From positions 483,607 to 547,606 of the forward strand of contig NZ_KE159707.1 of NCBI RefSeq assembly GCF_000403435.2: 64,000 nt of DNA, in the 5' to 3' direction. Positions 2,636-30,825 of the stretch are shown in pieces. The first letter of the stretch is position 1; every line of letters starts with the position of its first letter. The position numbers and the translations under genes were made by a program. This DNA comes from Oscillibacter sp. 1-3 (lineage in GTDB: Bacteria > Bacillota > Clostridia > Oscillospirales > Oscillospiraceae). The notes beneath the pieces were generated by a model. The model was given only the letters and a program-made list of their open reading frames with translations, had not been told where the DNA came from and did not search any database.

Positions 2636-3756
2636 TTTCCGGCGGCCTCCTTCTTTGTCTTTTTCGCTCTCTGCCGGAGGATATCCGGGAATTCCCGCTC
2701 CCCCATGATGCCCTTTCGGAAGAACAGCACCACGATCATGATAAAGATGGAGAACACCACCATCCGGAAGCCGGGAGCCAGCAGCTTGAGGCCGCCGGGG
2801 TTGTTGCCGGGATCATCCAGGAACCGCAGCCACCACTCGCTGCACCCGATGAAGAGATAGGAGGCGATGATGCTGCCGCTGATGGAGCCGATTCCGCCGA
2901 TGACCACCATGAGGAGGATCTCATAGGTCATGGCCACGGTAAAGCCCTTCGCCTGGACGCTGCTCATATACATGGCCAGCAGGCCGCCGCCCACGCCCGC
3001 GAAAAAGGAGCTGATGATGAAGGAGAGCATCTTGTGCTTTGCCAGATTGATGCCCATGGCCTCGGCGGCGATCTCATCGTCCCGGATGGCCTTGAAGGCC
3101 CGGCCGTAGGTGGAGTTTACCAGCAGCACGATGCCCAGAATGCACAGTCCCACAATAATGACATAGGGGTAGAGGTGCTTGAAGGTGGGATACTGCCGCA
3201 GGGTGTTGGAGCCGTTGGTGAGGGGGGCAAAGCTCTCATACTGGATGAAAGTGCGGATAATCTCTGCAAAGCCCAAAGTGGCAATGGCCAGATAGTCGCT
3301 TTTGAGCCGCAGCACCGGCAGGCCGATGAGCCAGCCGAAAAAGGCCGCCAGCAGGCCGCAGATCACCAGGGTGATTACCATCCCGATGACGCCGCCCACC
3401 AGATCGCCGAACACGCCGGAGAAGGTCTCCGGAATGGAGAACTGGACAATGCCGCCGTCATAGTACTGGTAGACCCCGGCCCGCTTCGCCACGGGGATGG
3501 TCAAAATGGCGTAGGTATAGGCGCCGATCAGCATGAATCCCGCCTGTCCCAGGGAGAACAGGCCCGTGAAGCCGTTCAGCAGGTTCATGGACACCGCCAG
3601 CAGCGCGTAGACGGTGCCTTTTTTCAGAACAGTCATGAGAAGCGTCTGGCCGGTGGCCTCCGCGATGCCCTCCGCCCCCAGGGACAGCGCCGAAAACGCG
3701 GCAATGAGGACCAGTCCCCATAGAATCGTCTTGTTGCGTTTTGTTTCCATCCTCAC
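2632..3756 (-). CDS. livM: Branched-chain amino acid ABC transporter permease LivM
   Basis: Inner-membrane permease with about 9-10 hydrophobic segments and the LivM hallmark QAGFMLIGAYTYAIL near the N-terminus. The cytoplasmic coupling loop is seen in RAFKAIRDDEIAAEAMGIN. The start is either GTG at 3756, which overlaps the livH TGA as GTGA and has GGAGG about 5 nt upstream, or ATG at 3750. The GTG is preferred for spacing. C-terminal residues (REFPDILRQRAKK) are basic and cytoplasmic. Confidence 0.93.
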   Translation of the reverse strand: MRMETKRNKTILWGLVLIAAFSALSLGAEGIAEATGQTLLMTVLKKGTVYALLAVSMNLLNGFTGLFSLGQAGFMLIGAYTYAILTIPVAKRAGVYQYYDGGIVQFSIPETFSGVFGDLVGGVIGMVITLVICGLLAAFFGWLIGLPVLRLKSDYLAIATLGFAEIIRTFIQYESFAPLTNGSNTLRQYPTFKHLYPYVIIVGLCILGIVLLVNSTYGRAFKAIRDDEIAAEAMGINLAKHKMLSFIISSFFAGVGGGLLAMYMSSVQAKGFTVAMTYEILLMVVIGGIGSISGSIIASYLFIGCSEWWLRFLDDPGNNPGGLKLLAPGFRMVVFSIFIMIVVLFFRKGIMGEREFPDILRQRAKKTKKEAAGK

Positions 3757-4628
3757 ACCTTCTCCTCCAGCTTCTCTCCGAAGAGGCCCGTGGGCTTCAC
3801 GAACAGCACCACGATCAGCAGCGCGAAGGTAAACGCGTCGCTGAAGGTGGAGTATCCCAGGCCCCGGATGATATTCTCACAGATGCCGATGATAAAGCCG
3901 CCCACCACAGCGCCGGGAATGGAGCCGATTCCGCCGAACACCGCTGCCACGAAGGCTTTCAGGCCCGGCATGGTGCCCACGGTGGGGGAGACGGTGGAGT
4001 AATTGCTGAAAAACAGGAAGGACCCCACCGCGGCCAGGAAGGAGCCGATGACGAAGGTCATGGAGATGACGCTGTTGATCTTGATCCCCATCAGCCGGGC
4101 CGTCTCAAAATCCCGGGAGGCCGCCCGCATGGCCATGCCGATGCGGGTCTTTTTAATCAGCGTCACCAGCGCCAGAATCAGCACAATGGTGAGGATGGGG
4201 GTAATGATGGTGACCCGCTTCGTCTCCGTGCCAAAGACGGAGATGCTGTCGGAGATCCAGGGGATGACCGGGTACTGCTGTGGCTGTCCGCCGGTGATAT
4301 ACCACATCAGGTTTTGCAGCAGGTAGCTGACGCCGATGGCGGAGATCATCACGCTCATACGGGGCGCGGAGCGCAGGGGCTTGTAGGCCAGCCGCTCCAC
4401 CGTGAACCCCAGGAGCACGGTGACGGCGATGGTCAGGGGGATCGCCAGCTGCACCGGCATGGCGGTGACGGCGTAAAACATGACAAAGCCCGCCACGGTG
4501 AAGATGTCGCCGTGGGCAAAGTTAATCAGGCGCAGAATGCCGTAGACCATCGTATAGCCCAGGGCGATGAGGGCGTACTGCCCGCCCACGGAGATGCCCG
4601 GCAGCAATGTCGACAAGATTTGTACCAT
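3753..4628 (-). CDS. livH: Branched-chain amino acid ABC transporter permease LivH
   Basis: 291-residue partner permease of LivM. It has eight or so membrane segments, the N-terminal GGQYALIALGYTMVYGILRLINFAHGD signature region, and the coupling loop GMAMRAASRDFETARLMGI. It is preceded by a good ribosome site and separated from livJ by two hairpins, and it overlaps livM by 4 bp. It forms the membrane channel for Leu/Ile/Val uptake. Confidence 0.95.
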   Translation of the reverse strand: MVQILSTLLPGISVGGQYALIALGYTMVYGILRLINFAHGDIFTVAGFVMFYAVTAMPVQLAIPLTIAVTVLLGFTVERLAYKPLRSAPRMSVMISAIGVSYLLQNLMWYITGGQPQQYPVIPWISDSISVFGTETKRVTIITPILTIVLILALVTLIKKTRIGMAMRAASRDFETARLMGIKINSVISMTFVIGSFLAAVGSFLFFSNYSTVSPTVGTMPGLKAFVAAVFGGIGSIPGAVVGGFIIGICENIIRGLGYSTFSDAFTFALLIVVLFVKPTGLFGEKLEEKV

Positions 4629-4649
4629 ATTCTCTCTCCTTATTTCCAG

Positions 4650-4748
4650 GTTTCGCCGGTTTTCCGGAAAGCAGATCCCGTCTCTGCCCTCCGGAAAACC
4701 GGCGGCGAAACGCCATGTACGGCAGCGGGGGAGAACCCCGCTGCCGTA
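4650..4748 (-). terminator. Two consecutive hairpins between livJ and livH
   Basis: On the livJ transcript the first hairpin is 4718-4748, a 13-bp perfect stem (TACGGCAGCGGGG / CCCCGCTGCCGTA) with a 5-nt loop. It is followed by an imperfect stem at 4650-4711 (GTTTCGCCGG...CCGGCGGCGAAAC with a bulge). Neither has a clean U-tract. The position suits partial termination or 3'-end protection that keeps binding-protein mRNA in excess over permease mRNA; that role is inferred. Confidence 0.6.
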
Positions 4749-4766
4749 TGTTTCCCGCAGGGGAGC

Positions 4767-5972
4767 TCACTGGGCGAGGCCCTGCTCCTTCACGGAATAG
4801 AATTCACCCTTTTCGGTGTCCACGCCTTTGATGAAGATGATGTTCTTGTCCACATCGCCCTCGTCGTCGAACACCACGTCGCCGGTGACGCCGGTGTAGG
4901 TCACGCCGGAGAGGGCCTGGGCAATGGCGTCGGAGTCGGCGGAATCGGCGGCCTTGATGGCCTCCACAGCCACCATGTAGGCGTCATAGCCCAGGGCGGA
5001 CACTGCGGAGACGGTGTCGCTGCCGCCGTTGTTGGAAAGCTTGTCGCTGTTGGCGTTCAGCCAGGACTTGAAGCCGTCCATAAAGGCGGCGGCGGCGTCA
5101 GAGGCGCCCTCGTCGTAGAAGGTGGAGAAGTAGACGTCCGTGCCGGCCTTGCTGGCGGCCTGGAGAATAACGGCGTCGTCCCAGGTGTCGCCGGCGATCA
5201 GGGGAATGCCGGCGGAGGCAGCCTGATCGATCAGCAGGGAGGCCACGGTGGTGGAGCAGGGCGCAAAGATGACGTCGGCGCCCGCGCTCTTGGCGGCGTT
5301 GACAAAGCCGGACATATCGGTGTTGCCCTGGGGGTTCTGGTCGGCCACCACCTGGATGCCCAGACGGCCGCACTCCTGGGTGAAGTACTCGCCCAGGCCC
5401 ACAGAGTAGTCGTCGCCCAGCTCCGTGAAGACGTAGGCGGTCTTGGCACTGAACTCATCCTTGGCCAGGTTGGCCAGCACGCTGCCCTGGAAGGGGTCCA
5501 GATAGCACACCCGGAAGTAGTAGGGGTTGCCCAGGGTCACGCCGGGGTTGGTGCAGGAGCAGCCGATGGCGGCGATCTTGGCCTCCTCGAACACGGGGGC
5601 GGCGGCCATGGACACGCCGGAGCCGTAGGAGCCCAGAACCACGGCCACACCGGAGCTCACCAGCTGCTGGGCCGCGGAGACGCCCTTGTCATTCTCGGAC
5701 TGGTTGTCCACAGGCACCAGCTCGATGCTGTACTCCTCGCCGCCGATGGTGACGGTGTTGACCTGGGTGTTGGCGTACTCGATGCCCAGGACCTCCTTCT
5801 TGCCGCCGGCGCCGTTGTTGCCGGAAGAGGGCTCATAGATGCCGATCTTGATGACTTTGCTGCCGGAAGCGCCGGAGCCCGAGCCGCCGTCGGAGCCGCC
5901 GGAATTGCCGCCGCAGGCCGCCAGGGACAAAACCATGGCCAGTGTCAGCAGCAGAGCGAATAGCTTTTTCAT
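4767..5972 (-). CDS. livJ: Branched-chain amino acid ABC transporter substrate-binding lipoprotein
   Basis: Extracellular solute-binding lipoprotein (Peripla_BP_6 type) that feeds LivHMGF. Starting at the ATG at 5972 (AGGAGG about 9 nt upstream) gives 401 residues opening MKKLFALLLTLAMVLSLAAC, a lipoprotein signal with lipobox LAAC and acylated Cys20. Upstream in-frame starts at 5981 and 6011 lack proper ribosome-site spacing. After a Gly/Ser linker the fold begins IKIGIYEPSSG; residues such as SYGSGVSMAAAPVFEEAKI match the ligand-cleft region. Substrate specificity cannot be fixed from sequence. Confidence 0.93.
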   Translation of the reverse strand: MKKLFALLLTLAMVLSLAACGGNSGGSDGGSGSGASGSKVIKIGIYEPSSGNNGAGGKKEVLGIEYANTQVNTVTIGGEEYSIELVPVDNQSENDKGVSAAQQLVSSGVAVVLGSYGSGVSMAAAPVFEEAKIAAIGCSCTNPGVTLGNPYYFRVCYLDPFQGSVLANLAKDEFSAKTAYVFTELGDDYSVGLGEYFTQECGRLGIQVVADQNPQGNTDMSGFVNAAKSAGADVIFAPCSTTVASLLIDQAASAGIPLIAGDTWDDAVILQAASKAGTDVYFSTFYDEGASDAAAAFMDGFKSWLNANSDKLSNNGGSDTVSAVSALGYDAYMVAVEAIKAADSADSDAIAQALSGVTYTGVTGDVVFDDEGDVDKNIIFIKGVDTEKGEFYSVKEQGLAQ

Positions 5973-6027
5973 TCTTTTCATCCTCCTCGAATTGGCGGAA
6001 TGGATTCCCATTCCAAGGTTATGGAAT

Positions 6028-6056
6028 ATATTATGCGGTTTTCAGCCGTTTTGCAA
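6028..6056 (-). promoter_or_regulatory. Sigma-70-type promoter for the liv operon
   Basis: Read on the minus strand: TTGCAA (6056-6051), a 17-nt spacer, then TAATAT (6033-6028), about 55 nt upstream of the livJ start. Spacing is optimal and no other good candidate lies nearby. Confidence 0.65.
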
Positions 6057-6304
6057 GATGAATAATACACAGAAAGAGAGGGGACGTTTTCCCGCCGCCC
6101 TCTTAAAATGTCCGCATTGCGCAGGCTTTATGTCTTTATATAGCGGACAAAAACCGATATGGACCAAAACGGAACCTGAGAACTGTCCACAAGTCACGGA
6201 CAGTTATTTTCGTGATTTTGATGAAAGCGCCCCGCGGAGGCCGGCGGTTTTTTCATATTTTAGCGGCTCTCCGCAGTGTTTTCCCGCCCTGTCCGCAAAA
6301 GCGG
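6057..6304. other. Intergenic region between ftsH and livJ
   Basis: No credible gene. It contains AT-richer sequence and a hairpin at 6181-6205 (AACTGTCC / GGACAGTT, followed by ATTTT on the plus strand) with no plus-strand gene to serve. Confidence 0.5.
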
Positions 6305-6333
6305 AGCCGCCCGCGCTGTATGCGCGGGCGGCT
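6305..6333 (-). terminator. Terminator-like hairpin after ftsH
   Basis: A 12-bp perfect stem (AGCCGCCCGCGC / GCGCGGGCGGCT) with loop TGTAT, 16 nt past the ftsH stop. On the minus strand the following sequence is CCGCTTTTGC, a short T-run, so termination is likely but not textbook. Confidence 0.65.
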
Positions 6334-6348
6334 GAAAAGGAAACTTCT

Positions 6349-8211
<1,863 letters not shown>

Positions 8212-19904: not shown

Positions 19905-21245
19905 TCACCGCCTCCTGCCAGAGGAGGAGGGGAGGCGCAGCTCCATGCGGTATTTGGCCACCGTGCGGCGGGCCACCCGGACGCCGTCCTCCGCCAGCAG
20001 CTCGCACAGCCGCTGGTCGCTGAGGGGCCGGCGGGGGTCCTCATTTTGCACCAGGGCCAAAAGCCTCTGCTTCACCGCCTGCCGGGAGGGGCCCTGCTCC
20101 CCCACGGCCCGGCTGAAAAAGTACCGCAGGGGATAGGTGCCCTGGCGGCACTGGAGATACTTGTCCCGGGCGGCCCGGGAGATGGTGGAGGGGTGCAGCT
20201 CCAGCGCCTCCGACAGCGAGAGGAGGCTCATGGGGGCCAGCTCCCCGGTCTCCCCGGCGAAGAAGGGACGCTGGGCCTCCAGAATGGCGTCCGCGCAGCG
20301 GCGGAGAGTACCGCCCCGGCGGTCCAGGCTGGTGAGGAGCCACTTGGCCTGCTGCATCTTCTGGCGGAGGTAGTCCCGGGTCTCCTTCTCGTCGGAGTCC
20401 TTCAAAAGCCGGGTGTAGTAGGAGCTGATGGAAATTCTGGGAAGATAGTATTCGTTGAGGACGGCTGTCAGGACCCCGTCCAGCTCCACAATGAACACAT
20501 CGGGCCGGACGTAGACCGCCGGCTCCGCCGGCTGGAAGGCCCGCCCCGGATGGGGGTCCAGGGAGGAGATGACCTTCTCCGCCGCCTGGATCTCCGCCGC
20601 GGAAAGGCCCAGCTCCCGGGCGATGGGGCCGTAGTGCTTCTTTCCCAGCTCCGGCAGAAATCGGGCGGCGATGTCCATCACCGCCGGGGAGACGTTCTCC
20701 CGCCGGGCCAGCTGCAGCAGCAAACACTCGGAGAGATCCCGGGCCCCCACGCCGGCGGGGTCCAGGGACTGGACGGTGTCCAGAGCCTGCCGGATCAGCG
20801 TGTCCGGAATTTTCAGCTCCCGCAGGCCGTCCAAATCGGCATCATCCAGATAACCGTCCTCATCCACCATTTCCGCGATGTACTTGGACAGGGCCAGCAG
20901 GGGCTTTGGCAGGCGCATGCGCTCCAGCTGGTCCCGGAGGAAGGCCGCCAGGCTCTCCAGCTCACGGTCCGCCGCCCCCCGCTCCGGCGGGGCGTTTTCG
21001 GCGTGGGCGAAGGTGGCGCCATACACGCCGCCGTCAATCCAGCTGGCCTTTTGCCGCAGCTCCTCATAGGCGTCCCGGAGGGAGGGGGCGTCCTCCGGCT
21101 CCAGCAGGGGGTTCTCCTCGGTGAGGCGTCCCAGGTACTCCAGCAGCTCCTGGGAGTTCATCTGCAGAATCTCCATGGACTGGAGCAGCTGGGGGGACAG
21201 CTTGAGCTGCTGGCGCAGCTCGGCTTTTAACGAGACCAGGCTCAT
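19905..21245 (-). CDS. rpoN: RNA polymerase sigma-54 factor RpoN
   Basis: 446 residues. The N-terminal activator-interacting region has the Gln/Leu-rich LRQQLKLSPQLLQSMEILQMNSQELLEYL typical of region I. The core-binding domain spans about 90-230, and the C-terminal RpoN box ARRTVAKYR (425-433) recognises the -24 element. The ATG overlaps the stop of the upstream activator gene as ATGA, so activator and sigma factor are made from one transcript. This pairing is unusual because rpoN is normally a separate housekeeping locus; it suggests that the butyrate operon next door is a main target. Confidence 0.96.
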   Translation of the reverse strand: MSLVSLKAELRQQLKLSPQLLQSMEILQMNSQELLEYLGRLTEENPLLEPEDAPSLRDAYEELRQKASWIDGGVYGATFAHAENAPPERGAADRELESLAAFLRDQLERMRLPKPLLALSKYIAEMVDEDGYLDDADLDGLRELKIPDTLIRQALDTVQSLDPAGVGARDLSECLLLQLARRENVSPAVMDIAARFLPELGKKHYGPIARELGLSAAEIQAAEKVISSLDPHPGRAFQPAEPAVYVRPDVFIVELDGVLTAVLNEYYLPRISISSYYTRLLKDSDEKETRDYLRQKMQQAKWLLTSLDRRGGTLRRCADAILEAQRPFFAGETGELAPMSLLSLSEALELHPSTISRAARDKYLQCRQGTYPLRYFFSRAVGEQGPSRQAVKQRLLALVQNEDPRRPLSDQRLCELLAEDGVRVARRTVAKYRMELRLPSSSGRRR

Positions 21246-22678
21246 GTGCGGGCCTCCTTTCCGGCGTATTTGGCGATCTTTCGGGCAGCGGTTGCCTGGG
21301 AGATGCCCAGCTCCTTCGCAACCGCCACCGTGGTGCCGCAGCGGCCGTAGGACTCCCGGATGATCTGGCCCTCGTAGGCCTCCATCCGCTCCGCCAGGGT
21401 GCCGCTCCGCGCGGGCGGGGAAATGGCATGTGCCGGCTCCCCGGCGTACTCCGGCGGCAGGTGGATCAGATCAATCACCGGGTCCTGGACGGTGATGGCC
21501 ATGCGCTCCATCAGGTTTTCCAGCTGGCGGACGTTGCCGGGCCAGTGGTACTGCTCCAAAAAGGCCATGAGGCGGGGGCTGAGGGTCAGGGCGCTGCCGT
21601 ACTCCTGGCAGAACCGGGAGAGGAACTGGTGGGCCAGGGGGAGCACGTCCTCCGTCCGCTGCCGCAGGGGCGGAATGTGCATCCGGATGACGTTGAGCCG
21701 GTAGAAGAGGTCGGAGCGGAAGGCGCCCCGGTGCACCGCGTCCTCCAGGTCCCGGTTGGTGGCCACCAGCAGCCGGAAGTCCAGCTCGATCTTCCTGGTG
21801 CCGGAGAGGCGCTCAATGGTCTTCTCCTGGATCAGCTGCAAAAGCTTGGACTGGATATGGGGGGGCAGCTCGCCGATCTCGTCCAGGAAGAGAGTGCCGC
21901 GGTTGGCCAGCTCGATTTTTCCGATCTTGCCCGTGGAGGCCGCCCCGGTGAAGGCCCCCTTCTCATAGCCGAAGAGCTCCGACTCGATGAGGTTCTCATG
22001 GAGCACCGCGCAGTTGACCTCGATAAAAGGACCGGCGGCCCGGCTGCTCATGGCGTGGATGGCCTTGGCCACGGCGCTCTTGCCCACGCCGGTCTCCCCG
22101 GTGATGAGGATGTTGGCCTTGGTGTTGGCGGTGTTCTGCATCAGGGTCAAAAGCCGCTGCATGGGCTGGCTCTTGAAGACCAGGCTGGTCTCGGTGGCCC
22201 GGAGGCGCAGCTCCGCAATCTCCTGGGAGTACTGCAGCAGGGAGTCCTGCATGCTGCGGTAGTTGCGCTGAATGCTGTTGATCTGCTCCATGGACACCGT
22301 GTTGAAGCACATCACATATTTCAGCTCCCCGCCCGCGTCAAAGAGGGGAATGCCCACAGTCATCACGTTTTTGTGGATGCGGTTGATGGTCTGGGTGGTG
22401 GTGATCTTCTGCTTCTGGCGGATAACGTCCGCCGTGATGCAGGGGACAAAGGTGCCGTCCGCCTCCAGGTCAAAGGCGGAGCGGCCCACAATAGAGTTGT
22501 GGGTGAAGCCGAAGTTCTTCTCGTAGGTCTCGCTGACCCGCAGAATGATGCCCTTGGCGTCGGAGAGCATCATGTCGTCCGCCAGAACCAGGTTGTTCTC
22601 AGGACTGATGATGTCAAAGAGGCTCTTAAGGTTGATGTCCTCCTCAAAGGCGTAGGGCAGGGCGGGGATCTGGGGCAT
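21242..22678 (-). CDS. Sigma-54-dependent activator: PAS, AAA+ and Fis/TyrR-type HTH
   Basis: 478 residues. A PAS-like sensor is at about 30-135, a coiled linker at 136-165, then the AAA+ domain: Walker A GETGVGKS (194-201), sigma-54-contacting GAFTGA (241-246), Walker B LFLDE (263-267) and R-finger region SDLFYRLNVIRMHIPPLR. The C-terminal HTH (TVAVAKELGISQATAARKIAKYA) is at about 445-468. There is no response-regulator domain, so it senses a cytosolic signal through PAS. It is divergent from the crotonase operon and first in an operon with rpoN. Such activators of crotonase-type operons have been proposed in Clostridiales. Confidence 0.94.
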   Translation of the reverse strand: MPQIPALPYAFEEDINLKSLFDIISPENNLVLADDMMLSDAKGIILRVSETYEKNFGFTHNSIVGRSAFDLEADGTFVPCITADVIRQKQKITTTQTINRIHKNVMTVGIPLFDAGGELKYVMCFNTVSMEQINSIQRNYRSMQDSLLQYSQEIAELRLRATETSLVFKSQPMQRLLTLMQNTANTKANILITGETGVGKSAVAKAIHAMSSRAAGPFIEVNCAVLHENLIESELFGYEKGAFTGAASTGKIGKIELANRGTLFLDEIGELPPHIQSKLLQLIQEKTIERLSGTRKIELDFRLLVATNRDLEDAVHRGAFRSDLFYRLNVIRMHIPPLRQRTEDVLPLAHQFLSRFCQEYGSALTLSPRLMAFLEQYHWPGNVRQLENLMERMAITVQDPVIDLIHLPPEYAGEPAHAISPPARSGTLAERMEAYEGQIIRESYGRCGTTVAVAKELGISQATAARKIAKYAGKEART

Positions 22679-22720
22679 AACGGACAGCTCCTTTCCGGTT
22701 TGGTGCGGCGGGACGGTCTT

Positions 22721-22738
22721 CTATTCATTTTTGAGTAT
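22721..22738. promoter_or_regulatory. Activator site 1 (imperfect 18-bp palindrome)
   Basis: CTATTCATTTTTGAGTAT: left half-site CTATTCA exact, right half TGAGTAT with two changes from TGAATAG. Its centre is 21 bp (two helical turns) from site 2. It overlaps the -10 of the activator gene's own promoter. Confidence 0.6.
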
Positions 22739-22742
22739 ACCA
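22734..22742 (-). promoter_or_regulatory. Extended -10 promoter of the activator-rpoN operon
   Basis: On the minus strand TGGTATACT, an extended -10 (TGn + TATACT), about 55 nt upstream of the activator start; the -35 is weak. It lies across the end of palindrome 1 and abuts palindrome 2, so a protein bound there should block it. Confidence 0.55.
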
Positions 22743-22759
22743 TATTCAAAAATGAATAG
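22742..22759. promoter_or_regulatory. Activator site 2 (18-bp palindrome)
   Basis: ATATTCAAAAATGAATAG: one mismatch from the perfect palindrome CTATTCA-AAAA-TGAATAG seen in site 3. Sites 1 and 2 are on the same helical face. Confidence 0.7.
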
Positions 22760-22869
22760 AAAGAGGAAATGAGTGGAAAATCTGTGTGCGGAATAGCCAA
22801 AATTTCGACCTGGATTTATACCCTGCGGCAAAATCCGACGCCGGAGGGCCGGACTGCAGGCATCTTCAG

Positions 22870-22891
22870 CTCTATTCAAAAATGAATAGAG
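22870..22891. promoter_or_regulatory. Activator site 3 (perfect 22-bp palindrome)
   Basis: Arms CTCTATTCA and TGAATAGAG around AAAA. It is centred about 140 bp upstream of the -24/-12 promoter at 23021, a normal enhancer distance for sigma-54 activators. The 18-bp core is shared with sites 1 and 2. Confidence 0.75.
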
Positions 22892-23020
22892 CCGTCGCGA
22901 TCCGGCGGATCATTGGAAAATCAAGGAAAAAACAGGGTGTGCTTTATGGCGGGAGCCTGTCCCGCATTGTGGAATGTGACAGAAATGGCCGCCGCTTTCC
23001 AGCAAAACGGACTTGAAATA

Positions 23021-23037
23021 TGGTACAGAAATTGCTA
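23021..23037 (+). promoter_or_regulatory. Sigma-54 (-24/-12) promoter of the butyrate operon
   Basis: TGGTACAGAAATTGCTA compared with consensus TGGCACR-N4-TTGCW: the invariant GG and GC are exactly 10 bases apart and the TTGCT box is intact; the -24 box has T for C. Expected start of transcription is near 23047, giving a leader of about 60 nt before the crotonase ATG. Confidence 0.8.
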
Positions 23038-23108
23038 TTATTCTTAACAGCAAAAGCGCGCCGCGGCAAAAGGCGGCGGGACATACCAATATTTAAGGAG
23101 GAGCTATC

Positions 23109-23909
23109 ATGTATCAGACCGTTCGCTACGAGAAGAAGGACAACATCGGCATTGCCACCATCAACCGCCCCGAGGCGCTGAACGCCCTCAACTCCACTGT
23201 CGTGGGAGAGCTGGAGCAGCTGATTTCCGAGGTGGAGAAGGACACGGAGCTGCGGGCCTTTATCCTCACCGGCGAGGGCCGTTCCTTCGTGGCCGGCGCA
23301 GACATCGGCGAGCAAAAGCCCATGGACGTGGCCCAGGGCCGCAAGTGGGGCCAGCGGGGCAGCGCCCTGTTCCGCCGCATCGAGAAGCTGGAGATCCCCA
23401 CCATCGCCGCGGTGAACGGCTTCGCCCTGGGCGGCGGCTGTGAGATCGCCATGAGCTGCGACATCATTCTGGCCGCCGGTCCCAACGCCGAGGGCAAGGG
23501 CGGCGCCAAGTTCGGCCAGCCCGAGGTGGGCCTTGGCATCACCCCCGGCTTCTCCGGCACCCAGCGCCTGCCCCGCCGTGTAGGACTGGCCAAGGCCAAG
23601 GAGCTGATCTTCTCCGGCAAGGTCATCGACGCCGCCGAGGCCAAGGCCATCGGCCTGGTGAACGAGGTCTATCCCCTGGAGCAGCTGATGGACGCCGCCA
23701 TTGCCATGGCCCAGTCCTTCGCCGTCAACGCTCCTATCGCCGTGAAGTACTCCAAGGCATGCATTGACCGGGGCATGCAGATGGACATTGACGACGGCAT
23801 TGCCCTGGAGAACGAGCTGTTTGCCATGTGCTTTGCCACCGAGGACCAGAAGGAGGGCATGGGCGCCTTCCTGGAAAAGCGCAAGGAAAAGCACTTCCAG
23901 AACAAATAA
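23109..23909 (+). CDS. crt: Crotonase (enoyl-CoA hydratase / 3-hydroxybutyryl-CoA dehydratase)
   Basis: 266 residues with AAGGAGGAG upstream of the ATG. The oxyanion-hole segments are GRSFVAGADIGE and GFALGGGCEIAMSCD; the two catalytic acids are Glu112 (GGGCE) and Glu139 (QPEVGLG). The spacing between them is about seven residues longer than usual because of an AAGPNAEGKGG insert. It interconverts crotonyl-CoA and 3-hydroxybutyryl-CoA. It is the first gene after the sigma-54 promoter, 54 bp before the CoA-transferase gene. No thiolase or 3-hydroxybutyryl-CoA dehydrogenase gene accompanies it here. Confidence 0.92.
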   Translation: MYQTVRYEKKDNIGIATINRPEALNALNSTVVGELEQLISEVEKDTELRAFILTGEGRSFVAGADIGEQKPMDVAQGRKWGQRGSALFRRIEKLEIPTIAAVNGFALGGGCEIAMSCDIILAAGPNAEGKGGAKFGQPEVGLGITPGFSGTQRLPRRVGLAKAKELIFSGKVIDAAEAKAIGLVNEVYPLEQLMDAAIAMAQSFAVNAPIAVKYSKACIDRGMQMDIDDGIALENELFAMCFATEDQKEGMGAFLEKRKEKHFQNK

Positions 23910-23963
23910 AGGCTGTAATAGCAGCCAAAAACACACCTATCATCAATCGAGGAGTGGAAAACC

Positions 23964-25520
23964 ATGAAAAAAGTTCGTGTGATCTCCGCTGAGGAGGCCG
24001 CGCTGCTGGTCAACGACGGCGACACCATCTCCACCGGCGGCTTCGTCAGCTGCGCCTGCCCCGAGGCGCTGTCCACCGCCCTGGAAAAGCGCTTTGTGGA
24101 GACCGGCCACCCCAGGGACCTGACGCTGTTCTTCGCCGCGGGCCAGGGCCACCGGGACGGCACCGGCGGCGACCACTACGGCCACGAGGGCATGGTCAAG
24201 CGGGTGGTGGGAGGCCACTGGGACCGGGCCCCCAAGCTGGGCGACCTGGCCCTGGCCAACAAGATCGAAGCCTACAACCTGCCCCAGGGCGTCATCACCC
24301 ACATGTACCGGGACATCGCCGCCCACAACATCGGCACCATCACTCACGTGGGCCTGTACACCTTCGCCGACCCCCGCAACGGCGGCGGCAAGCTGAACAC
24401 CTGCACGAAAGAGGACCTGGTAAAGCTCATTGAGATCGAGGGCGAGGAGCGCCTGCTGTACAAGGGCTTCCCCATCAACGTCTGCTTCCTCCGGGGCAGC
24501 TACGCCGACGAGTACGGCAACTGCACCGTACATAGGGAGATCGGCCCTCTGGACGTCACCGCCCAGGCCCAGGCCACCAAGAACTCCGGCGGCAAGGTCA
24601 TTGTCCAGGTGGAGAAGATCGTCCAGGGCGGCTCCCTTGACCCCAAGCTGGTGAAGATCCCCGGCATCTACGTGGACGCCATCGTGGTGGGCTCCATCGA
24701 GGACAATATGCAGTGCCTGGGGATGCCCTACGACGGCGCCCTCACCGGCGAGTTCCGCATCCCCGTGGACGCCATCCCCCCCATCCCCCTGGACGCCAAG
24801 AAGATTCTGGCCCGCCGGGCGGCCATGGAGCTGCCCCAGGACGCCATTGTCAACCTGGGCACCGGCGCGCCGGAGAAGATCGCCAACGTGGCGGCGGAGG
24901 AGGGCATCTCCGACAAGCTGACCCTCACCGTAGAGGCTGGCTCCATCGCCGGCGTGCCCTACGGCGGCACCCAGTTCGGCGCGGCGGCCAACTCCATGGC
25001 CATTCTGGACCACAACGTCCAGTTTGACTTCTACCAGGGCGGCGGCCTGGACGTGGCCTTCCTGGGCCTGGCGGAGACGGCCCCCAACGGAGACCTGAAC
25101 GTGTCCAAATTCGGCACGCGCCTGGCGGGCGCCGGCGGCTTCATCGACATCACTCAGAACGCCAAAAAGGTGGTCTACTGCGGCACCTTCACCGCCAAGG
25201 GCCTCAAGACCGAGTGCCGGGACGGCAAGCTGGTCATCACCCAGGAGGGCGCCAAGAAGAAGTTTGTCAACGAGGTGGAGCACATCACCTTCTCCGGCGT
25301 ATACGCCAACAAGGTCCACCAGCCGGTGCTGTATGTCACCGAGCGGGCCGTCTTTGAGCTCCGCCCCGAGGGCGTGACGCTGATTGAGATCGCCCCCGGC
25401 ATCGACCTCCAGACCCAGGTGCTGGACCAGATGGAGTTCATGCCCAAAATCGCCGAGGATCTGAAGCTCATGGACGAGCGCATTTTCAAGGATGAGCTCA
25501 TGGGCCTTGCCAACGACTAA
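23964..25520 (+). CDS. Family I CoA-transferase, propionate/acetate CoA-transferase (Pct/YdiF) type
   Basis: 518 residues with alpha and beta halves fused, as in Pct/YdiF. The alpha-half hallmark is VNDGDTISTGGFVSCACPEALSTAL... near residues 16-40; the catalytic glutamate is Glu324 in LTVEAGSIAGVPYGG, the position used by Clostridium propionicum Pct (numbering from memory). It swaps CoA between acyl-CoA and a free acid by a glutamyl-CoA thioester. In this operon it could activate 4-hydroxybutyrate using acetyl- or butyryl-CoA, or release butyrate. It is not of the AbfT/Cat2 type usually paired with 4-hydroxybutyrate. Confidence 0.9.
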   Translation: MKKVRVISAEEAALLVNDGDTISTGGFVSCACPEALSTALEKRFVETGHPRDLTLFFAAGQGHRDGTGGDHYGHEGMVKRVVGGHWDRAPKLGDLALANKIEAYNLPQGVITHMYRDIAAHNIGTITHVGLYTFADPRNGGGKLNTCTKEDLVKLIEIEGEERLLYKGFPINVCFLRGSYADEYGNCTVHREIGPLDVTAQAQATKNSGGKVIVQVEKIVQGGSLDPKLVKIPGIYVDAIVVGSIEDNMQCLGMPYDGALTGEFRIPVDAIPPIPLDAKKILARRAAMELPQDAIVNLGTGAPEKIANVAAEEGISDKLTLTVEAGSIAGVPYGGTQFGAAANSMAILDHNVQFDFYQGGGLDVAFLGLAETAPNGDLNVSKFGTRLAGAGGFIDITQNAKKVVYCGTFTAKGLKTECRDGKLVITQEGAKKKFVNEVEHITFSGVYANKVHQPVLYVTERAVFELRPEGVTLIEIAPGIDLQTQVLDQMEFMPKIAEDLKLMDERIFKDELMGLAND

Positions 25521-25535
25521 AGTATAAAAGTTTCG

Positions 25536-25587
25536 CGCAAGCCTTTTCAAAGGCTTGCGGGGTGCAGGGGCAGCGCCCCTGCACCCC
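25536..25587 (+). repeat. Double hairpin between the CoA-transferase gene and abfD
   Basis: Two abutting perfect hairpins: CGCAAGCCTTT / AAAGGCTTGCG (25536-25559) and GGGGTGCAGGGGC / GCCCCTGCACCCC (25559-25587, loop AGC). They share one G. No T-run follows. Similar rich hairpins occur as dispersed intergenic sequence in Oscillospiraceae (from memory). They could cause partial termination or protect a processed 3' end. Confidence 0.7.
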
Positions 25588-25706
25588 GCAGGGCGCGGGA
25601 TTCCCCCAAAAGAGGCAAAAACACAGCGTCTCTGCCGCAAAGCGGCAGACAGCGTCCCTCAATAGAAGATAAAAGCCCCCCAAGAACAAAAAGGAGGACC
25701 AATCAA

Positions 25707-27182
25707 ATGGCCTTAATGACCGCCAACGAGTATGTGGAGAGCCTGCGGAAGCTGAACACCCGGGTCTACATGTTCGGCGAAAAAATCGACAACTGGGTGG
25801 ACCACCCCATGATCCGCCCCTCCATCAACTGCGTGGCCATGACCTATGCCCTGGCCCAGGACCCCCAGTACGCGGACCTGATGACCGTAAAGTCCAGCCT
25901 GACGGGCCACACCGTCAACCGCTTCACCCACCTGCACCAGTCCACCGAGGACCTCATTAACAAGGTGAAGATGCAGCGTCTGCTGGGCCAGAAGACCGCC
26001 AGCTGCTTCCAGCGCTGCGTGGGCATGGACGCCTTTAACGCCGTCTACTCCAGCACCTACGAGATCGACGAGAAGCACGGCACCCGCTACCACGAGAACT
26101 TCAAGAAGTTCCTCACCTTCGTCCAGGACAACGACCTCACCGTGGACGGCGCCATGACCGACCCCAAGGGCGACCGGTCCAAGTCCCCCAGCCAGCAGGC
26201 GGACCCGGACATGTACGTCCACGTGGTGGAGCGCCGGGAGGACGGCATCGTGGTCTCGGGCGCCAAGTGCCACCAGACCGGCTCCATCAACAGCCACTGG
26301 CACATCTTCATGCCCACCATCGCCATGGGCGAGGCGGACAAGGACTGGGCCGTCTCCTTCGCCTGCCCCACCGACGCCGAGGGCATGTATATGATCTACG
26401 GCCGCCAGTCCTGCGACACCCGCAAGCTGGAGGAAAACGCGGACATCGACGTGGGCAATGCCAAGTTCGGCGGCCAGGAGGCCCTGGTGGTGCTGGACCA
26501 TGTGTTCATCCCCAACGAGTACATCTTCTTAAACGGCGAGTATGAGTTCGCCGGCATGATCGTGGAGCGGTTCGCCGGCTACCACCGCCAGAGCTACGGC
26601 GGGTGCAAGGTGGGCGTGGGCGACGTGGTCATCGGCGCCGCGGCCCTTGCCGCCGAGTACAACGGCGTGGAGAAGGCCAGCGCGGTGAAGGATAAGCTCA
26701 TTGAGATGACCCACCTGAACGAGACGCTGTACTGCTGCGGCATCGCCTGCTCCAGCCAGGGCGCTCCCACCAAGGCGGGCAACTACCAGATCGACCTGCT
26801 GCTGGCCAACGTCTGCAAGCAGAACGTGACCCGCTTCCCCTACGAGATCGTGCGCCTGGCGGAGGACATCGCCGGCGGCCTGATGGTCACCATGCCCAGC
26901 CAGAAGGACTTCGACTCCGACACCGTAGTGGGCCGGAACGGGGAGACCATCGGCGAGATCTGCAAGAAGTTTTTCGCCGCCCGGGAGGGCGTCTCCACCG
27001 AGGACCGCCAGCGGATCATGCGCTTCCTGGAGAACATGTGCCTGGGCGCCGCTGCAGTGGGCTACCGCACGGAGTCCATGCACGGCGCAGGCTCGCCCCA
27101 GGCCCAGCGGATCATGATCGCCCGCCAGGGCAACATCCAGGGAAAGAAGCAGTTCGCCAAGGACATCGCGGGCATTCAGTAA
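25707..27182 (+). CDS. abfD: 4-hydroxybutyryl-CoA dehydratase / vinylacetyl-CoA delta-isomerase
   Basis: 491 residues. A [4Fe-4S]/FAD enzyme that dehydrates 4-hydroxybutyryl-CoA to crotonyl-CoA by a ketyl-radical route. All four cluster ligands known from Clostridium aminobutyricum are present at identical numbers: Cys99 and Cys103 (ASCFQRC), His292 and Cys299 (GYHRQSYGGC). Full length, no break, AAGGAGG ribosome site. It defines the operon as the succinate/4-aminobutyrate branch to butyrate. The 4-hydroxybutyrate dehydrogenase that would supply substrate is not in the window. Confidence 0.97.
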   Translation: MALMTANEYVESLRKLNTRVYMFGEKIDNWVDHPMIRPSINCVAMTYALAQDPQYADLMTVKSSLTGHTVNRFTHLHQSTEDLINKVKMQRLLGQKTASCFQRCVGMDAFNAVYSSTYEIDEKHGTRYHENFKKFLTFVQDNDLTVDGAMTDPKGDRSKSPSQQADPDMYVHVVERREDGIVVSGAKCHQTGSINSHWHIFMPTIAMGEADKDWAVSFACPTDAEGMYMIYGRQSCDTRKLEENADIDVGNAKFGGQEALVVLDHVFIPNEYIFLNGEYEFAGMIVERFAGYHRQSYGGCKVGVGDVVIGAAALAAEYNGVEKASAVKDKLIEMTHLNETLYCCGIACSSQGAPTKAGNYQIDLLLANVCKQNVTRFPYEIVRLAEDIAGGLMVTMPSQKDFDSDTVVGRNGETIGEICKKFFAAREGVSTEDRQRIMRFLENMCLGAAAVGYRTESMHGAGSPQAQRIMIARQGNIQGKKQFAKDIAGIQ

Positions 27183-27534
27183 GCCGCTCCCCGGGCCCCC
27201 GCGCCAAGCCCGGCCAAGCGGTCCGCGCATGGAGAGGGAATGCCGCACCCGCAGGCGCGTCTCGGAGGCCAACCGCCGCGAAGCGGCGGCTCTCAGGCCG
27301 GAGCTGAGCGGGCGGAGTCCTCGCCGCAAGGCGGGGCCGGAACGGAATTCCTTCCGCGGAGCGAACAGAGAAATTTTTCCGGAAGCAAATCTCGGAAAAA
27401 CGTCTAATCTTATGATCCCGGACCAACCCCCGGGGCAAAACTCGGGGGTTGTCCTTTTCACGCAAAAATCGAGAAAATTTAGGCAAAAATGTACAAAAAT
27501 CCCTCAGAAAATTGTAATAAGGAGAGAACATCAC
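27183..27534 (+). other. Intergenic leader between abfD and bcd
   Basis: 352 bp without a credible gene. GC-rich up to about 27360, then AT-rich. At 27424-27451 a hairpin (CAACCCCCG / CGGGGGTTG, 10-nt loop) is followed by TCCTTTT, resembling a weak terminator or attenuator inside the operon. The ribosome site AAGGAGAG lies just before bcd. Confidence 0.55.
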
Positions 27535-28672
<1,138 letters not shown>

Positions 28673-28674
<2 letters not shown>

Positions 28675-28696
28675 TACTTTCTTGAAAGAAAGTATC
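28673..28696. repeat. Perfect 24-bp palindrome at the bcd stop codon
   Basis: GATACTTTCTT / AAGAAAGTATC with a GA centre; the TGA stop of bcd lies within its left edge. A further small hairpin (GACAGCC / GGCTGTC, 28820-28839) precedes etfB. Function unknown; possible mRNA processing site between bcd and etfBA. Confidence 0.65.
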
Positions 28697-28896
28697 CAAA
28701 GAACTTTCGCGCGCTCCGGCAGTCCGGCAATCAACCGGGCTGAAGCGGCGGCAACGTTTAACTTCTCTCTGCGCAGAAAGTTTCTCTGATCCCGGCAAGA
28801 CTTTTGTACGGCAAAATTGACAGCCATGACCGGCTGTCGTGAGCACAGAAAGGGATCTGCCCTGGGATTCAAAATAAATTTGGAGGAAAAACAAGT

Positions 28897-29697
28897 ATGA
28901 AGATCATTGTTTGCGTCAAGCAAGTACCTGATACCTCCGGCAAGGTGGCCGTCAATCCCGACGGCACGCTGAACCGGGCTTCCATGCAGACCATCACCAA
29001 CCCCGACGACATGAACGCCGTGGAGGCCGCCCTGAAACTGAAGGACGCCGCCGGCTGCAAGGTTATCGTTGTCACCATGGGCCCGCCTCCCGCCGCGGGG
29101 ATGCTGCGGGAGCTGATGGCCATGGGCGCCGACGAGGGCGTGCTGGTGTCCGCCCGCGAGTTCGGCGGGTCCGACACCTACGCCACCTCCCAGATCCTGG
29201 CCGCGGCCATTGACACCATCGGCGTGGAGAAGGGAGACATCGTCATGTGCGGCCGCCAGGCCATCGACGGCGACACCGCCCAGGTGGGCCCCCAGATCGC
29301 CGAGAAACTGGGCCTGCCCCAGGTGACCTACGCCGCCGACATCCAGAAGGACGGGGAGAACATCACCGTCAAACGGATGCTGGAGGACGGCTACATGACC
29401 ATCAAGGTCCAGACTCCCTGCCTGCTGACCTGCATCAAGGAGCTCAACAACCCCCGCTACATGTCCATCGGCGGCATCTACGCCACCTACTCCAAGCCGC
29501 TGGAGACCTTCGACTACGAGAAGCTGAAGGACCACAGGCTCATCGACGCCGCCACCATCGGCCTCAAGGGCTCTCCCACCAACATCTTCAAGAGCTTCAC
29601 CCCGCCCCAGAAGGGCGCCGGCATGATGCTGGAGGGCGACGGCAAGGAGACCTGCGAGCAGCTGGCCGGGATTCTGGCCAAGAAGCACATCATCTGA
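28897..29697 (+). CDS. etfB: Electron transfer flavoprotein beta subunit
   Basis: 266 residues beginning MKIIVCVKQVPDTSGKVAV. Adenine-nucleotide/flavin-binding segments GDIVMCGRQAIDGDTAQVGPQIAEKLGLPQVTYA and the recognition-loop region ETPCLLTCIKELNNPRYMS-like sequence are present. In bifurcating complexes this subunit carries the FAD that receives electrons from NADH. GGAGG precedes the ATG; the stop is 18 bp before etfA. Confidence 0.96.
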   Translation: MKIIVCVKQVPDTSGKVAVNPDGTLNRASMQTITNPDDMNAVEAALKLKDAAGCKVIVVTMGPPPAAGMLRELMAMGADEGVLVSAREFGGSDTYATSQILAAAIDTIGVEKGDIVMCGRQAIDGDTAQVGPQIAEKLGLPQVTYAADIQKDGENITVKRMLEDGYMTIKVQTPCLLTCIKELNNPRYMSIGGIYATYSKPLETFDYEKLKDHRLIDAATIGLKGSPTNIFKSFTPPQKGAGMMLEGDGKETCEQLAGILAKKHII

Positions 29698-29715
29698 GAA
29701 AGGGGATAAACGATT

Positions 29716-30825
29716 ATGTCTAATTTCAACAGCGCGGATATTGCTGCTTTCAAGGATGTATGGGTGTTCTGCGAGCAGCGCGAGGGCAAGCTGATGCCCA
29801 CCGATTTTGAGCTGATCTCCAAGGGCCGCGACCTGGCCAACGAGCTGGGCGTGAACGTCTGCGGACTGCTGCTGGGCGGCAAGGGCATTGAGGCTGCCGC
29901 CAAGGAGCTGGGCGGCTACGGCGCGGACAAGGTCTATGTCTGCGAGGACGAGAAGCTGGCCGTCTACAACACCGACGCCTACGCCAAGGTCATCTGCGAC
30001 GTCATTGAGGAGCTCAAGCCCGAGGCGTTCCTGATCGGCGCCACCAACATCGGCCGCGACCTGGCCCCCCGCTGCGCGGCCCGCCTCCACACCGGCCTGT
30101 GCGCCGACTGCACCCACCTGGACATCGACGTGGCCAACTACATCCAGTTCCTGCGTGAGAGCAGCACTCTGGACGTGGACGGCCAGAAGTGGGACATGGA
30201 GGACCGGAACCTGAAGATGACCCGTCCCGCCTTCGGCGGCCACCTGATGGCCACCATCATCTGCCCCCGCTTCCGTCCCTGCATGGCCACGGTCCGTCCC
30301 GGCGTTATGAAGAAGAACGCCTTCGACCAGGCCAAGGCCGCCGCCTGCGTCATTGAGAAGCCCGCCTTCACGTTGTCCGACGCGGACATCCACACCGAGG
30401 TCACCGAGGTGGTGAAGGCCGCCAAGAAGCTGGTGGACCTGATCGGCGCGGACTTCATCGTGTCCGTGGGCCGCGGCATCAGCAAGGACGTGGAAGGCGG
30501 CATCAAGCTGGCCGAGGAGCTTGCCGCCGAGCTGGGCGGCGTCGTGGGCGGCAGCCGCGCCACCATCGACAGCGGCTGGCTCAGCGCCGACCATCAGGTG
30601 GGCCAGACCGGCAAGACCGTGCACCCCAAGGTGTACATCGCCCTGGGCATCTCCGGCGCTATTCAGCACAAGGCCGGCATGCAGGATTCCGAGTGCATCA
30701 TCGCGGTGAACAAGAACGACACCGCCCCCATCTTCGAGATTGCCGACTACGGCATCTGCGGCGACCTGTTCAAGGTCACCCCCATGCTCACCGAGGCCAT
30801 CCGCGCCGCCAAGGCCGCGAAGTAA
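29716..30825 (+). CDS. etfA: Electron transfer flavoprotein alpha subunit
   Basis: 369 residues. The C-terminal FAD domain shows GGSRATIDSGWLSADHQVGQTG, VYIALGISGAIQH and SECIIAVNKNDTAPIFEIADYGI, all standard EtfA. It pairs with EtfB to shuttle electrons to Bcd. Last intact gene of the operon; only a decayed TRAP permease follows before the terminator at 31398. Confidence 0.96.
   Translation: MSNFNSADIAAFKDVWVFCEQREGKLMPTDFELISKGRDLANELGVNVCGLLLGGKGIEAAAKELGGYGADKVYVCEDEKLAVYNTDAYAKVICDVIEELKPEAFLIGATNIGRDLAPRCAARLHTGLCADCTHLDIDVANYIQFLRESSTLDVDGQKWDMEDRNLKMTRPAFGGHLMATIICPRFRPCMATVRPGVMKKNAFDQAKAAACVIEKPAFTLSDADIHTEVTEVVKAAKKLVDLIGADFIVSVGRGISKDVEGGIKLAEELAAELGGVVGGSRATIDSGWLSADHQVGQTGKTVHPKVYIALGISGAIQHKAGMQDSECIIAVNKNDTAPIFEIADYGICGDLFKVTPMLTEAIRAAKAAK

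What the first reader, a model, noticed from the sequence alone, without database searches (positions are those of the whole stretch)
19905..30825. Self-contained sigma-54 switch: activator and rpoN in one operon, divergent from a 4-hydroxybutyrate-to-butyrate operon
Seen: a PAS/AAA+/HTH activator with GAFTGA overlaps rpoN by ATGA on the minus strand, and on the plus strand crt - CoA-transferase - abfD - bcd - etfBA follows a -24/-12 promoter. Known: sigma-54 genes need such activators, and sigma-54 control of crotonase operons has been proposed in Clostridiales. Inferred: here the sigma factor itself is bundled with its activator beside its target, so butyrate synthesis from 4-hydroxybutyrate may switch as an autonomous unit in response to a PAS-sensed metabolite.
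Basis: partly seen in the sequence, partly recalled or inferred. Interest (0 to 1): 0.75.

Follow-up and report, generated by a model that had tools for sequence, protein, structure and literature searches.

The report
Butyrate switch that outlives its sigma factor
A gut bacterium carries the gene for its only sigma-54 transcription factor in the same operon as the activator of a butyrate-making operon, and a few relatives that appear to have lost sigma-54 still keep this one activator with its sigma-54 contact loop destroyed, which suggests the switch was rewired to the ordinary sigma factor.

Summary
In detail: a GAFTGA activator (21242-22678) overlaps rpoN (19905-21245) and diverges from crt-pct-abfD-bcd-etfBA behind a -24/-12 element (23021-23036). 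The autonomous-switch claim is not: this is the genome's only rpoN beside ten strong activator matches. The activator itself looks dedicated. Its 18-bp palindrome occurs with at most one mismatch only in this intergenic region, and in 11 of 11 relatives where activator and operon are unlinked the palindromes stand before crt. Two unexpected results: the -24/-12 coincides with a sigma-A-like promoter in 24 of 45 butyrate promoters but 0 of 13 other sites in this genome; and GAFTGA is intact in 44 of 44 activators from genomes with rpoN but lost in 3 of 4 without. In those three the DNA-binding helix and palindromes persist, the -24/-12 is gone and no other sigma-54 activator remains; six other rpoN-less genomes lost the activator too. 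Inferred: repeated rewiring from sigma-54 to sigma-A. Nothing has been tested at the bench.

The parts
19905..21245 (-). rpoN, RNA polymerase sigma-54 factor; only copy found in the genome
   Evidence: TIGR02395 396 bits, three Pfam sigma-54 domains; single PF04552 match in own genome
21242..22678 (-). sigma-54 enhancer-binding activator: PAS-like, AAA+ with GAFTGA, HTH
   Evidence: Pfam/NCBIfam, PAS_9 in 20 of 23 aligned proteins, overlaps rpoN by ATGA
22721..22738 (.). operator-like palindrome 1
   Evidence: 2 mismatches to CTATTCANNNNTGAATAG; conserved position
22734..22742 (-). extended -10 (TGGTATACT) of the activator-rpoN operon, between and overlapping palindromes 1 and 2 (inferred promoter)
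   Evidence: TGnTATA[C/A]TC in window and all 31 loci shown; not in the 10 unlinked arrays shown
22742..22759 (.). operator-like palindrome 2, 21 bp from palindrome 1
   Evidence: 1 mismatch; conserved
22872..22889 (.). operator-like palindrome 3
   Evidence: 0 mismatches; conserved
23013..23041 (+). sigma-A-like promoter TTGAAA-17-TATTAT superimposed on the sigma-54 promoter
   Evidence: same register in 24 of 45 butyrate promoters, 0 of 13 other sites
23021..23036 (+). -24/-12 sigma-54 promoter TGGTAC-N5-TTGCT
   Evidence: counterpart found in 33 of 46 relatives' loci
23109..23909 (+). crt, short-chain enoyl-CoA hydratase (crotonase)
   Evidence: PF00378; best NCBIfam NF004475, below its cut-off (354 vs 394)
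23964..25520 (+). family I CoA-transferase (YdiF-like; the name pct is mine)
   Evidence: PF01144, 459 bits to 2ahu
25707..27182 (+). abfD, 4-hydroxybutyryl-CoA dehydratase
   Evidence: 922 bits to 1u8v; C100, C104, H293, C300
27424..27451 (+). terminator-like hairpin between abfD and bcd
27535..28674 (+). bcd, acyl-CoA (butyryl-CoA) dehydrogenase
   Evidence: 500 bits to chain C of 5ol2
28897..29697 (+). etfB
   Evidence: NF042971 501.5 vs cut-off 475 bits
29716..30825 (+). etfA
   Evidence: NF042970 690 vs cut-off 600 bits

Best explanation
A dedicated one-component sigma-54 activator controls a crotonyl-CoA-to-butyryl-CoA operon by binding three palindromic enhancers and opening sigma-54 polymerase at a -24/-12 promoter (inferred from conserved sequence). 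Two of its sites also cover the -10 of its own promoter, so it probably represses itself and the rpoN behind it; as that rpoN is the cell's only one, the butyrate activator may help set the sigma-54 level for the other activators (inferred). The operon promoter is composite: a sigma-A -35/-10 lies on the -24/-12, so the two polymerases would compete for it (inferred). Some lineages without rpoN lost the activator altogether; three others kept it as their only sigma-54-type activator: it lost GAFTGA, kept its DNA-binding helix and operators, and the promoter lost the -24 while keeping a sigma-A part. There it probably works as a sigma-A-dependent regulator, activator or repressor unknown.
For: Palindromes with at most one mismatch occur in the genome only here. 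All three are at set spacings in 32 of 46 relatives' loci. In 11 of 11 unlinked genomes they precede crt elsewhere, each with a -24/-12. Extended -10 between sites 1 and 2 in window and 31 loci, not in 10 unlinked arrays. Composite promoter 24 of 45 against 0 of 13 other sites; shuffles mean 0.15, maximum 3. GAFTGA in 44 of 44 with rpoN, 1 of 4 without. G183, G149 and G143 have one sigma-54-type activator each, this one; 11 rpoN-bearing genomes in the same search have 2-9. The three lie at separate places of the activator tree, keep palindromes and lack -24/-12.
Against: No expression or binding data. G143 and G149 are 71% and 88% complete, so missing rpoN is firm only for G183 (96%); G180 (77%) has no rpoN found but keeps GAFTGA and -24/-12. 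Only four genomes are in the class, and the three have long branches, whose placing the tree tool calls unsure and which decay would also give. Six well-assembled rpoN-less genomes kept crt but not the activator. 21 of 45 butyrate promoters miss the composite criterion. Autorepression is read from overlap only; the filter itself favoured part of the -10, and unlinked genomes have no such overlap.
Confidence: 0.65

Rival explanations
1. One reading: an autonomous unit in which sigma factor, activator and target form a private switch.
For: Activator and rpoN overlap here and are adjacent in 41 of 44 genus genomes that have both.
Against: Sole rpoN in a genome with ten strong activator matches; 13 TGGCAYN5TTGCW sites against 5 for the reversed pattern, seven of them within about 1.2 kb of six other activators' domains; 16 genus genomes have rpoN without this activator; target unlinked in 11 of 46 loci.
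Confidence: 0.04
2. In the three rpoN-less genomes the activator is a decaying leftover, not a working sigma-A regulator.
For: Long branches for G149, G143 and G183; the lesions differ among the three; six other rpoN-less genomes have lost it altogether.
Against: Open frames of 477-519 residues without stops; the HTH segment is nearly identical to the intact ones; palindromes and the activator's own -10 persist; all other sigma-54-type activators are gone from these genomes at the cut-off used.
Confidence: 0.28
3. Missing rpoN in G183, G149 and G143 reflects incomplete assemblies.
For: G143 71%, G149 88% complete; G206 (93%) has five activators and an intact -24/-12 but no rpoN was found, so gaps do occur.
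Against: G183 is 96% complete; all three lost GAFTGA and the -24/-12; six further genomes of 94-96% completeness lack both rpoN and every activator.
Confidence: 0.08
4. The TATAAT beside the -12 is only an AT-rich melting stretch, not a sigma-A promoter.
For: Most other sigma-54-like sites in this genome are followed by AT-rich sequence too.
Against: None of 13 other sites has a -10 of 5 or 6 matches in that register, 29 of 45 butyrate promoters do; a -35-like hexamer at 16-18 nt is in 29 of 45 against 2 of 13. In 5 rpoN-less genomes TTGC-TATAAT is part of the best sigma-A-like promoter before crt.
Confidence: 0.25

Closest known systems
Sigma-54 butyrate regulons of Clostridiales: CrbR, XanR, YctR, XcgR (Nie et al. 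2019, PMC6615313; abstract, sections 5 and 9 and passages seen)
   Same: Activators, mostly PAS-bearing, predicted to control crt/bcd/etf or abfD operons from sigma-54 promoters with UAS sites; a single sigL per genome in the 57 genomes that have it.
   Different: 'Oscillibacter' does not occur in the main text. The order crt-pct-abfD-bcd-etfBA is not in the parts of Table 1 that I saw. 'autoregul' and 'overlap' do not occur, and what I saw says nothing of rpoN in an activator's operon or of activators outliving sigma-54.
GAFTGA-less enhancer-binding proteins: TyrR, DhaR, HupR, and those of Fusobacterium nucleatum and Jannaschia, which lack sigma-54 (Francke et al. 2011, PMC3162934; passages seen)
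   Same: Loss or change of GAFTGA and shown or proposed sigma-70 dependence, in two organisms without sigma-54.
   Different: Here congeneric genomes with and without rpoN are compared, and operators, target operon and promoter are followed; the three lesions differ.
Neisseria pilE sigma-70 and sigma-N promoters with a degenerate rpoN (PMC6755734; passages seen)
   Same: Sigma-54 and sigma-70 promoters close together or overlapping; sigma-N can block sigma-70; rpoN decaying.
   Different: There the activator is truncated in N. meningitidis; here it persists with its operators.
4-hydroxybutyryl-CoA dehydratase 1u8v (Clostridium aminobutyricum, species recalled)
   Same: AbfD 922 bits, Fe-S ligand positions conserved.
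   Different: Operon and control were not compared.

Membership tests
Sigma-54 factor (RpoN) | activator-interacting, core-binding and DNA-binding domains; curated equivalog score | tested here: met
Sigma-54 enhancer-binding activator | AAA+ Sigma54_activat domain with GAFTGA and C-terminal HTH | tested here: met
   best fold-search hits are sigma-54 activators
Sigma-54 enhancer-binding activator | binds upstream palindromes and activates a -24/-12 promoter | not testable with these tools
   only conservation and the unlinked-genome test
PrdR (best-scoring NCBIfam activator model) | NF041552 curated score 795 bits | tested here: not met
   345.8 bits; not filed as PrdR
CrbR/XanR/YctR/XcgR groups of Nie et al. 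| orthology and same UAS motif | not tested
   their sequences and motif logos were not seen
4-hydroxybutyryl-CoA dehydratase | Fe-S ligands C99, C103, H292, C299 (recalled) and full-length similarity to 1u8v | tested here: met
   (C100, C104, H293, C300 here)
Acryloyl-CoA reductase complex (AcrCBA) | NCBIfam scores for all three subunits | tested here: inconclusive
   EtfB and EtfA over the AcrB/AcrA cut-offs, dehydrogenase below AcrC (532 vs 640)
GAFTGA-less, main-sigma-dependent enhancer-binding protein (TyrR-like), for the G143, G149, G183 orthologues only | GAFTGA lost, DNA binding kept, works with the main sigma factor | tested here: inconclusive
   loop lost and HTH kept by sequence; the working with sigma-A is not testable here

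The most novel reading that the evidence does not exclude
A composite sigma-A/sigma-54 promoter let Oscillibacter-type gut bacteria leave sigma-54 more than once. In at least two lineages the only sigma-54-type activator that survived was the butyrate activator, which shed its sigma-54 contact loop, kept its operators and became a sigma-A regulator of the same operon; other lineages went further and dropped it. Where rpoN remains, the butyrate activator's autorepression sets the supply of sigma-54 for the whole cell.
Probability: 0.45. Interest if true: 0.75.

Novelty: new variant of a known kind. Interest (0 to 1): 0.6.

Why it matters
How a bacterium can leave sigma-54 is a real evolutionary puzzle, because sigma-54 and sigma-A recognise different promoters and are activated differently. 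These genomes give congeners in which the same palindromes, operon and DNA-binding helix can be followed through the loss, with a composite promoter as a plausible bridge, so the question becomes testable with reporters. The target is butyrate formation in gut bacteria, so the switch also bears on when they make it.

Tried and rejected
Autonomous switch: rejected. Second rpoN: none found in own genome. Linkage as the essence: rejected by 11 unlinked genomes. rpoN beside this activator as a trait of the whole family: not borne out; of 29 other rpoN loci read (from 44 matching genomes of 120) only L149, same genus, has it; those loci reach only about 0.6-0.9 kb upstream of rpoN, so more distant neighbours were not seen, and L161 shows a weak 33% activator-like match. 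PrdR membership: not met. A 4-hydroxybutyrate dehydrogenase: six iron-alcohol-dehydrogenase matches, five scanned; four match NF058672 far under its cut-off (108-216 vs 500 bits), so the source of 4-hydroxybutyrate is unresolved. The fold model was of low confidence (pTM 0.36) and its fold search returned known sigma-54 activators among the 50 rows shown. No Rfam match at gathering score and no tRNA in the window. Literature: Oscillibacter with sigma-54 gave one paper, a fosmid study listing an rpoN (passages); for activators without rpoN the useful hits were PMC3162934 and PMC6755734; one search returned none. PMC5715108 (passages) lists abfD as a pathway gene and places Oscillibacter in the acetyl-CoA pathway.

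Rows dropped or limits: the 39% match of G164 and the second, paralogous matches in G150 and G195 were left out of counts. Of 26 genus genomes without an over-cut-off rpoN, 21 were given. In one search, 13 of 46 loci without a -24/-12 match (or cut short) were left out by construction, so the 45 rows (window, 33 loci, 11 unlinked) are all of sigma-54 type; they are related and not independent. In one search the array of L114 (spacing 20 bp) and loci L050, L064 and L068 failed the filter, and the filter itself fixed part of the sites' inner ends. L053 and L056 are cut by contig ends and counted neither as linked nor unlinked. In one search rows G164, G201 and G213 were left out. Alignment A1 holds 20 of the 46 loci plus two distant ones.
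Full report
What is there. The activator overlaps rpoN by ATGA at 21242-21245. The -24/-12 element at 23021-23036 is the only such site in the window. AbfD is a convincing 4-hydroxybutyryl-CoA dehydratase: 922 bits to 1u8v over 488 residues with the Fe-S ligand positions kept (which residues are ligands is recalled). The dehydrogenase is closest to a chain of 5ol2, recalled to be a clostridial butyryl-CoA dehydrogenase/Etf complex. Between abfD and bcd lie 352 nt with a terminator-like hairpin, so the six genes may not form one transcript. In 20 relatives' loci where the gap could be measured it is 92-271 nt, with a terminator-like hairpin in 9 of 20 by a crude script.

Not autonomous. The genome (4.47 Mb, 94.7% complete) has one rpoN and 14 matches to the sigma-54 activator domain, ten of them over 140 bits. 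The pattern TGGCAYN5TTGCW has 13 matches against 5 for the reversed pattern, so some are chance; seven lie within about 1.2 kb of six other activators' domains. Genes beside such sites include a 3-hydroxybutyrate dehydrogenase, a CoA-transferase subunit and a 3-hydroxyacyl-CoA dehydrogenase in a row, an amino-acid permease, an amidohydrolase and an AtuA-family gene, each near another activator, and, without an activator nearby, FlhB. So this rpoN is most likely the general sigma-54 of the cell.

But the activator looks dedicated. The palindrome CTATTCANNNNTGAATAG occurs with at most one mismatch at two places in the genome, both here; a third copy with two mismatches lies 21 bp from one of them; seven other places have two mismatches, and the reversed pattern has four. 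Orthologues of the activator at 66% identity or more were found in 46 loci (L027-L072), in records named mostly Oscillibacter, Dysosmobacter or Oscillospiraceae. In 33 of 46 crt or abfD of the divergent operon is beside it. In 32 of 46 the three palindromes stand at similar spacings, about 21 and 130 bp, and 33 of 46 have a -24/-12 245-353 nt from the activator's start. In 11 of 46 the activator is not beside the operon and has no palindrome upstream; two more loci are cut by contig ends. In all 11 of those genomes the palindromes are found before crt elsewhere, three copies at most one mismatch from the 16-mer core in 9 of 11 and two copies in 2 of 11, each with a -24/-12; single matches at other places occur in these genomes too. 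This separation test is the best evidence that activator, sites and operon belong together, and it shows that linkage is not needed. The front of the operon varies: L064 lacks abfD there, and L063, L068 and L069 have abfD first, without crt beside it.

Own promoter. In the window and 31 loci the stretch between palindromes 2 and 1, with their inner ends, reads TGnTATA[C/A]TC on the activator's strand, an extended -10. In 10 unlinked arrays that stretch differs. The filter used for the 31 rows itself required part of the inner ends, with two mismatches allowed, but not the TG or the last bases. Occupation of sites 1 and 2 would cover the -10 of the activator-rpoN operon. Autorepression, and with it a brake on the only rpoN, is inferred, not shown. 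As sites 1 and 2 persist in unlinked genomes they also seem to serve as enhancers.

Composite promoter. In the window a sigma-A-like promoter TTGAAA-17-TATTAT (23013-23041) lies on the -24/-12. Among 45 butyrate promoters of this type (window, 33 loci, 11 unlinked), 24 have both a -10 with at least 5 of 6 matches directly after TTGC and a -35 with at least 4 of 6 at 16-18 nt; 0 of 13 other sigma-54-like sites in this genome do; 1000 composition-keeping shuffles gave a mean of 0.15 and a maximum of 3. The 45 are related, so not independent, and 21 of 45 fail the criterion.

What happens without rpoN. In the genus, 60 of 86 genomes have an rpoN over the cut-off, one strong match each, three of them with an extra short stretch of 22-32 bits. 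The activator is in 48 of 86 (leaving out a 39% match). Both are present in 44, adjacent in 41; in the other three they are on different contigs. Sixteen have rpoN without this activator, four the activator without rpoN. Of 26 genomes without rpoN, 21 were searched for crt and 16 have it. Activator domains counted in 22 chosen genomes (E<=1e-20): G148, G152, G153, G159, G174 and G192 (no rpoN, 94-96% complete) have none; G183 (96%), G149 (88%), G143 (71%) and G180 (77%) have exactly one, this activator; G206 has five and is probably an assembly gap, as its crt promoter still carries palindromes and -24/-12; the 11 rpoN-bearing genomes have 2-9. GAFTGA is present in 44 of 44 activators from rpoN-bearing genomes and in 1 of 4 without, G180 (by hand, 4 in 17,296 under random assignment, ignoring kinship). 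G143 has lost both loop segments of the AAA+ domain, G183 reads DSSTGS and G149 GAATAR in place of GAFTGA, while the DNA-binding helix is almost unchanged. Palindromes persist in all three, three copies in G149 and G143 and two in G183; no -24/-12 was found there, whereas G180 keeps both GAFTGA and -24/-12.

Promoters of rpoN-less genomes. Apart from G206 and G180, no -24/-12 was found before crt in 14 of 16 loci. In 5 of these 14 (G149, G152, G163, G192, G193) the best sigma-A-like promoter reads TTGC-TATAAT, as if the -12 had become an extended -10 and the -24 were erased; G146, G147 and G153 come close, G143 is weaker, G159 has TATAAT without TG, and G148, G174, G183 and G185 show nothing convincing before crt. 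In G183 the operon beside the activator starts with abfD, behind TTGCAA and TGTTATAAA.

Number of events. In the activator tree G183 falls among G170, G179 and G180, and G143 beside G169 and G114, both with strong support; G149 is unresolved; the tool warns that long rows are unsurely placed. At least two events are likely.

Reading. Most likely a dedicated sigma-54 activator circuit, converted to sigma-A control in some lineages where rpoN was lost and dropped in others. Whether the GAFTGA-less proteins activate, repress or merely decay is not known. That activators without GAFTGA go over to sigma-70 is in print (PMC3162934, passages), as are close or overlapping sigma-70/sigma-N promoters with a failing rpoN (PMC6755734, passages) and predicted sigma-54 control of clostridial butyrate operons (PMC6615313, abstract, sections 5 and 9 and passages). 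What appears new, within searches, is the set of congeneric genomes in which operators, target and promoter can be followed through the loss, and rpoN standing behind this activator's promoter. On checking, the confidence of the best explanation was lowered from 0.68 to 0.65, because six well-assembled rpoN-less genomes that lost the activator had been left out of its statement.

Noticed in passing
27424-27451: Strong terminator-like hairpin in the 352-nt gap between abfD and bcd; may split or attenuate the operon.
   Followed up: partly
L163 (G000:C8:306000-318000) 2572-5825: Another sigma-54-type gene row next to its own activator: 3-hydroxybutyrate dehydrogenase (TIGR01963 over cut-off), a CoA-transferase subunit and a 3-hydroxyacyl-CoA dehydrogenase.
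   Followed up: partly
L175 (G000:C10 near 33773): A second acyl-CoA dehydrogenase beside a 3-hydroxybutyryl-CoA dehydrogenase-like gene, so the window's Bcd is not the only such gene.
   Followed up: no
L252 (G195) and L253 (G150): Paralogous activators at 51-53% identity, GAFTGA intact, with a -24/-12-like site upstream and no palindromes of this type.
   Followed up: no
L182 (G000:C1 near 1142941): Phosphoenolpyruvate mutase (TIGR02320 over cut-off) beside an iron alcohol dehydrogenase, which suggests phosphonate synthesis.
   Followed up: no
L174 (G068:C23:118000-128000) 2698-6391: In this same-genus genome without the activator, rpoN lies near a gene whose start resembles an acetyl-CoA acetyltransferase (by eye, not scanned).
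   Followed up: no
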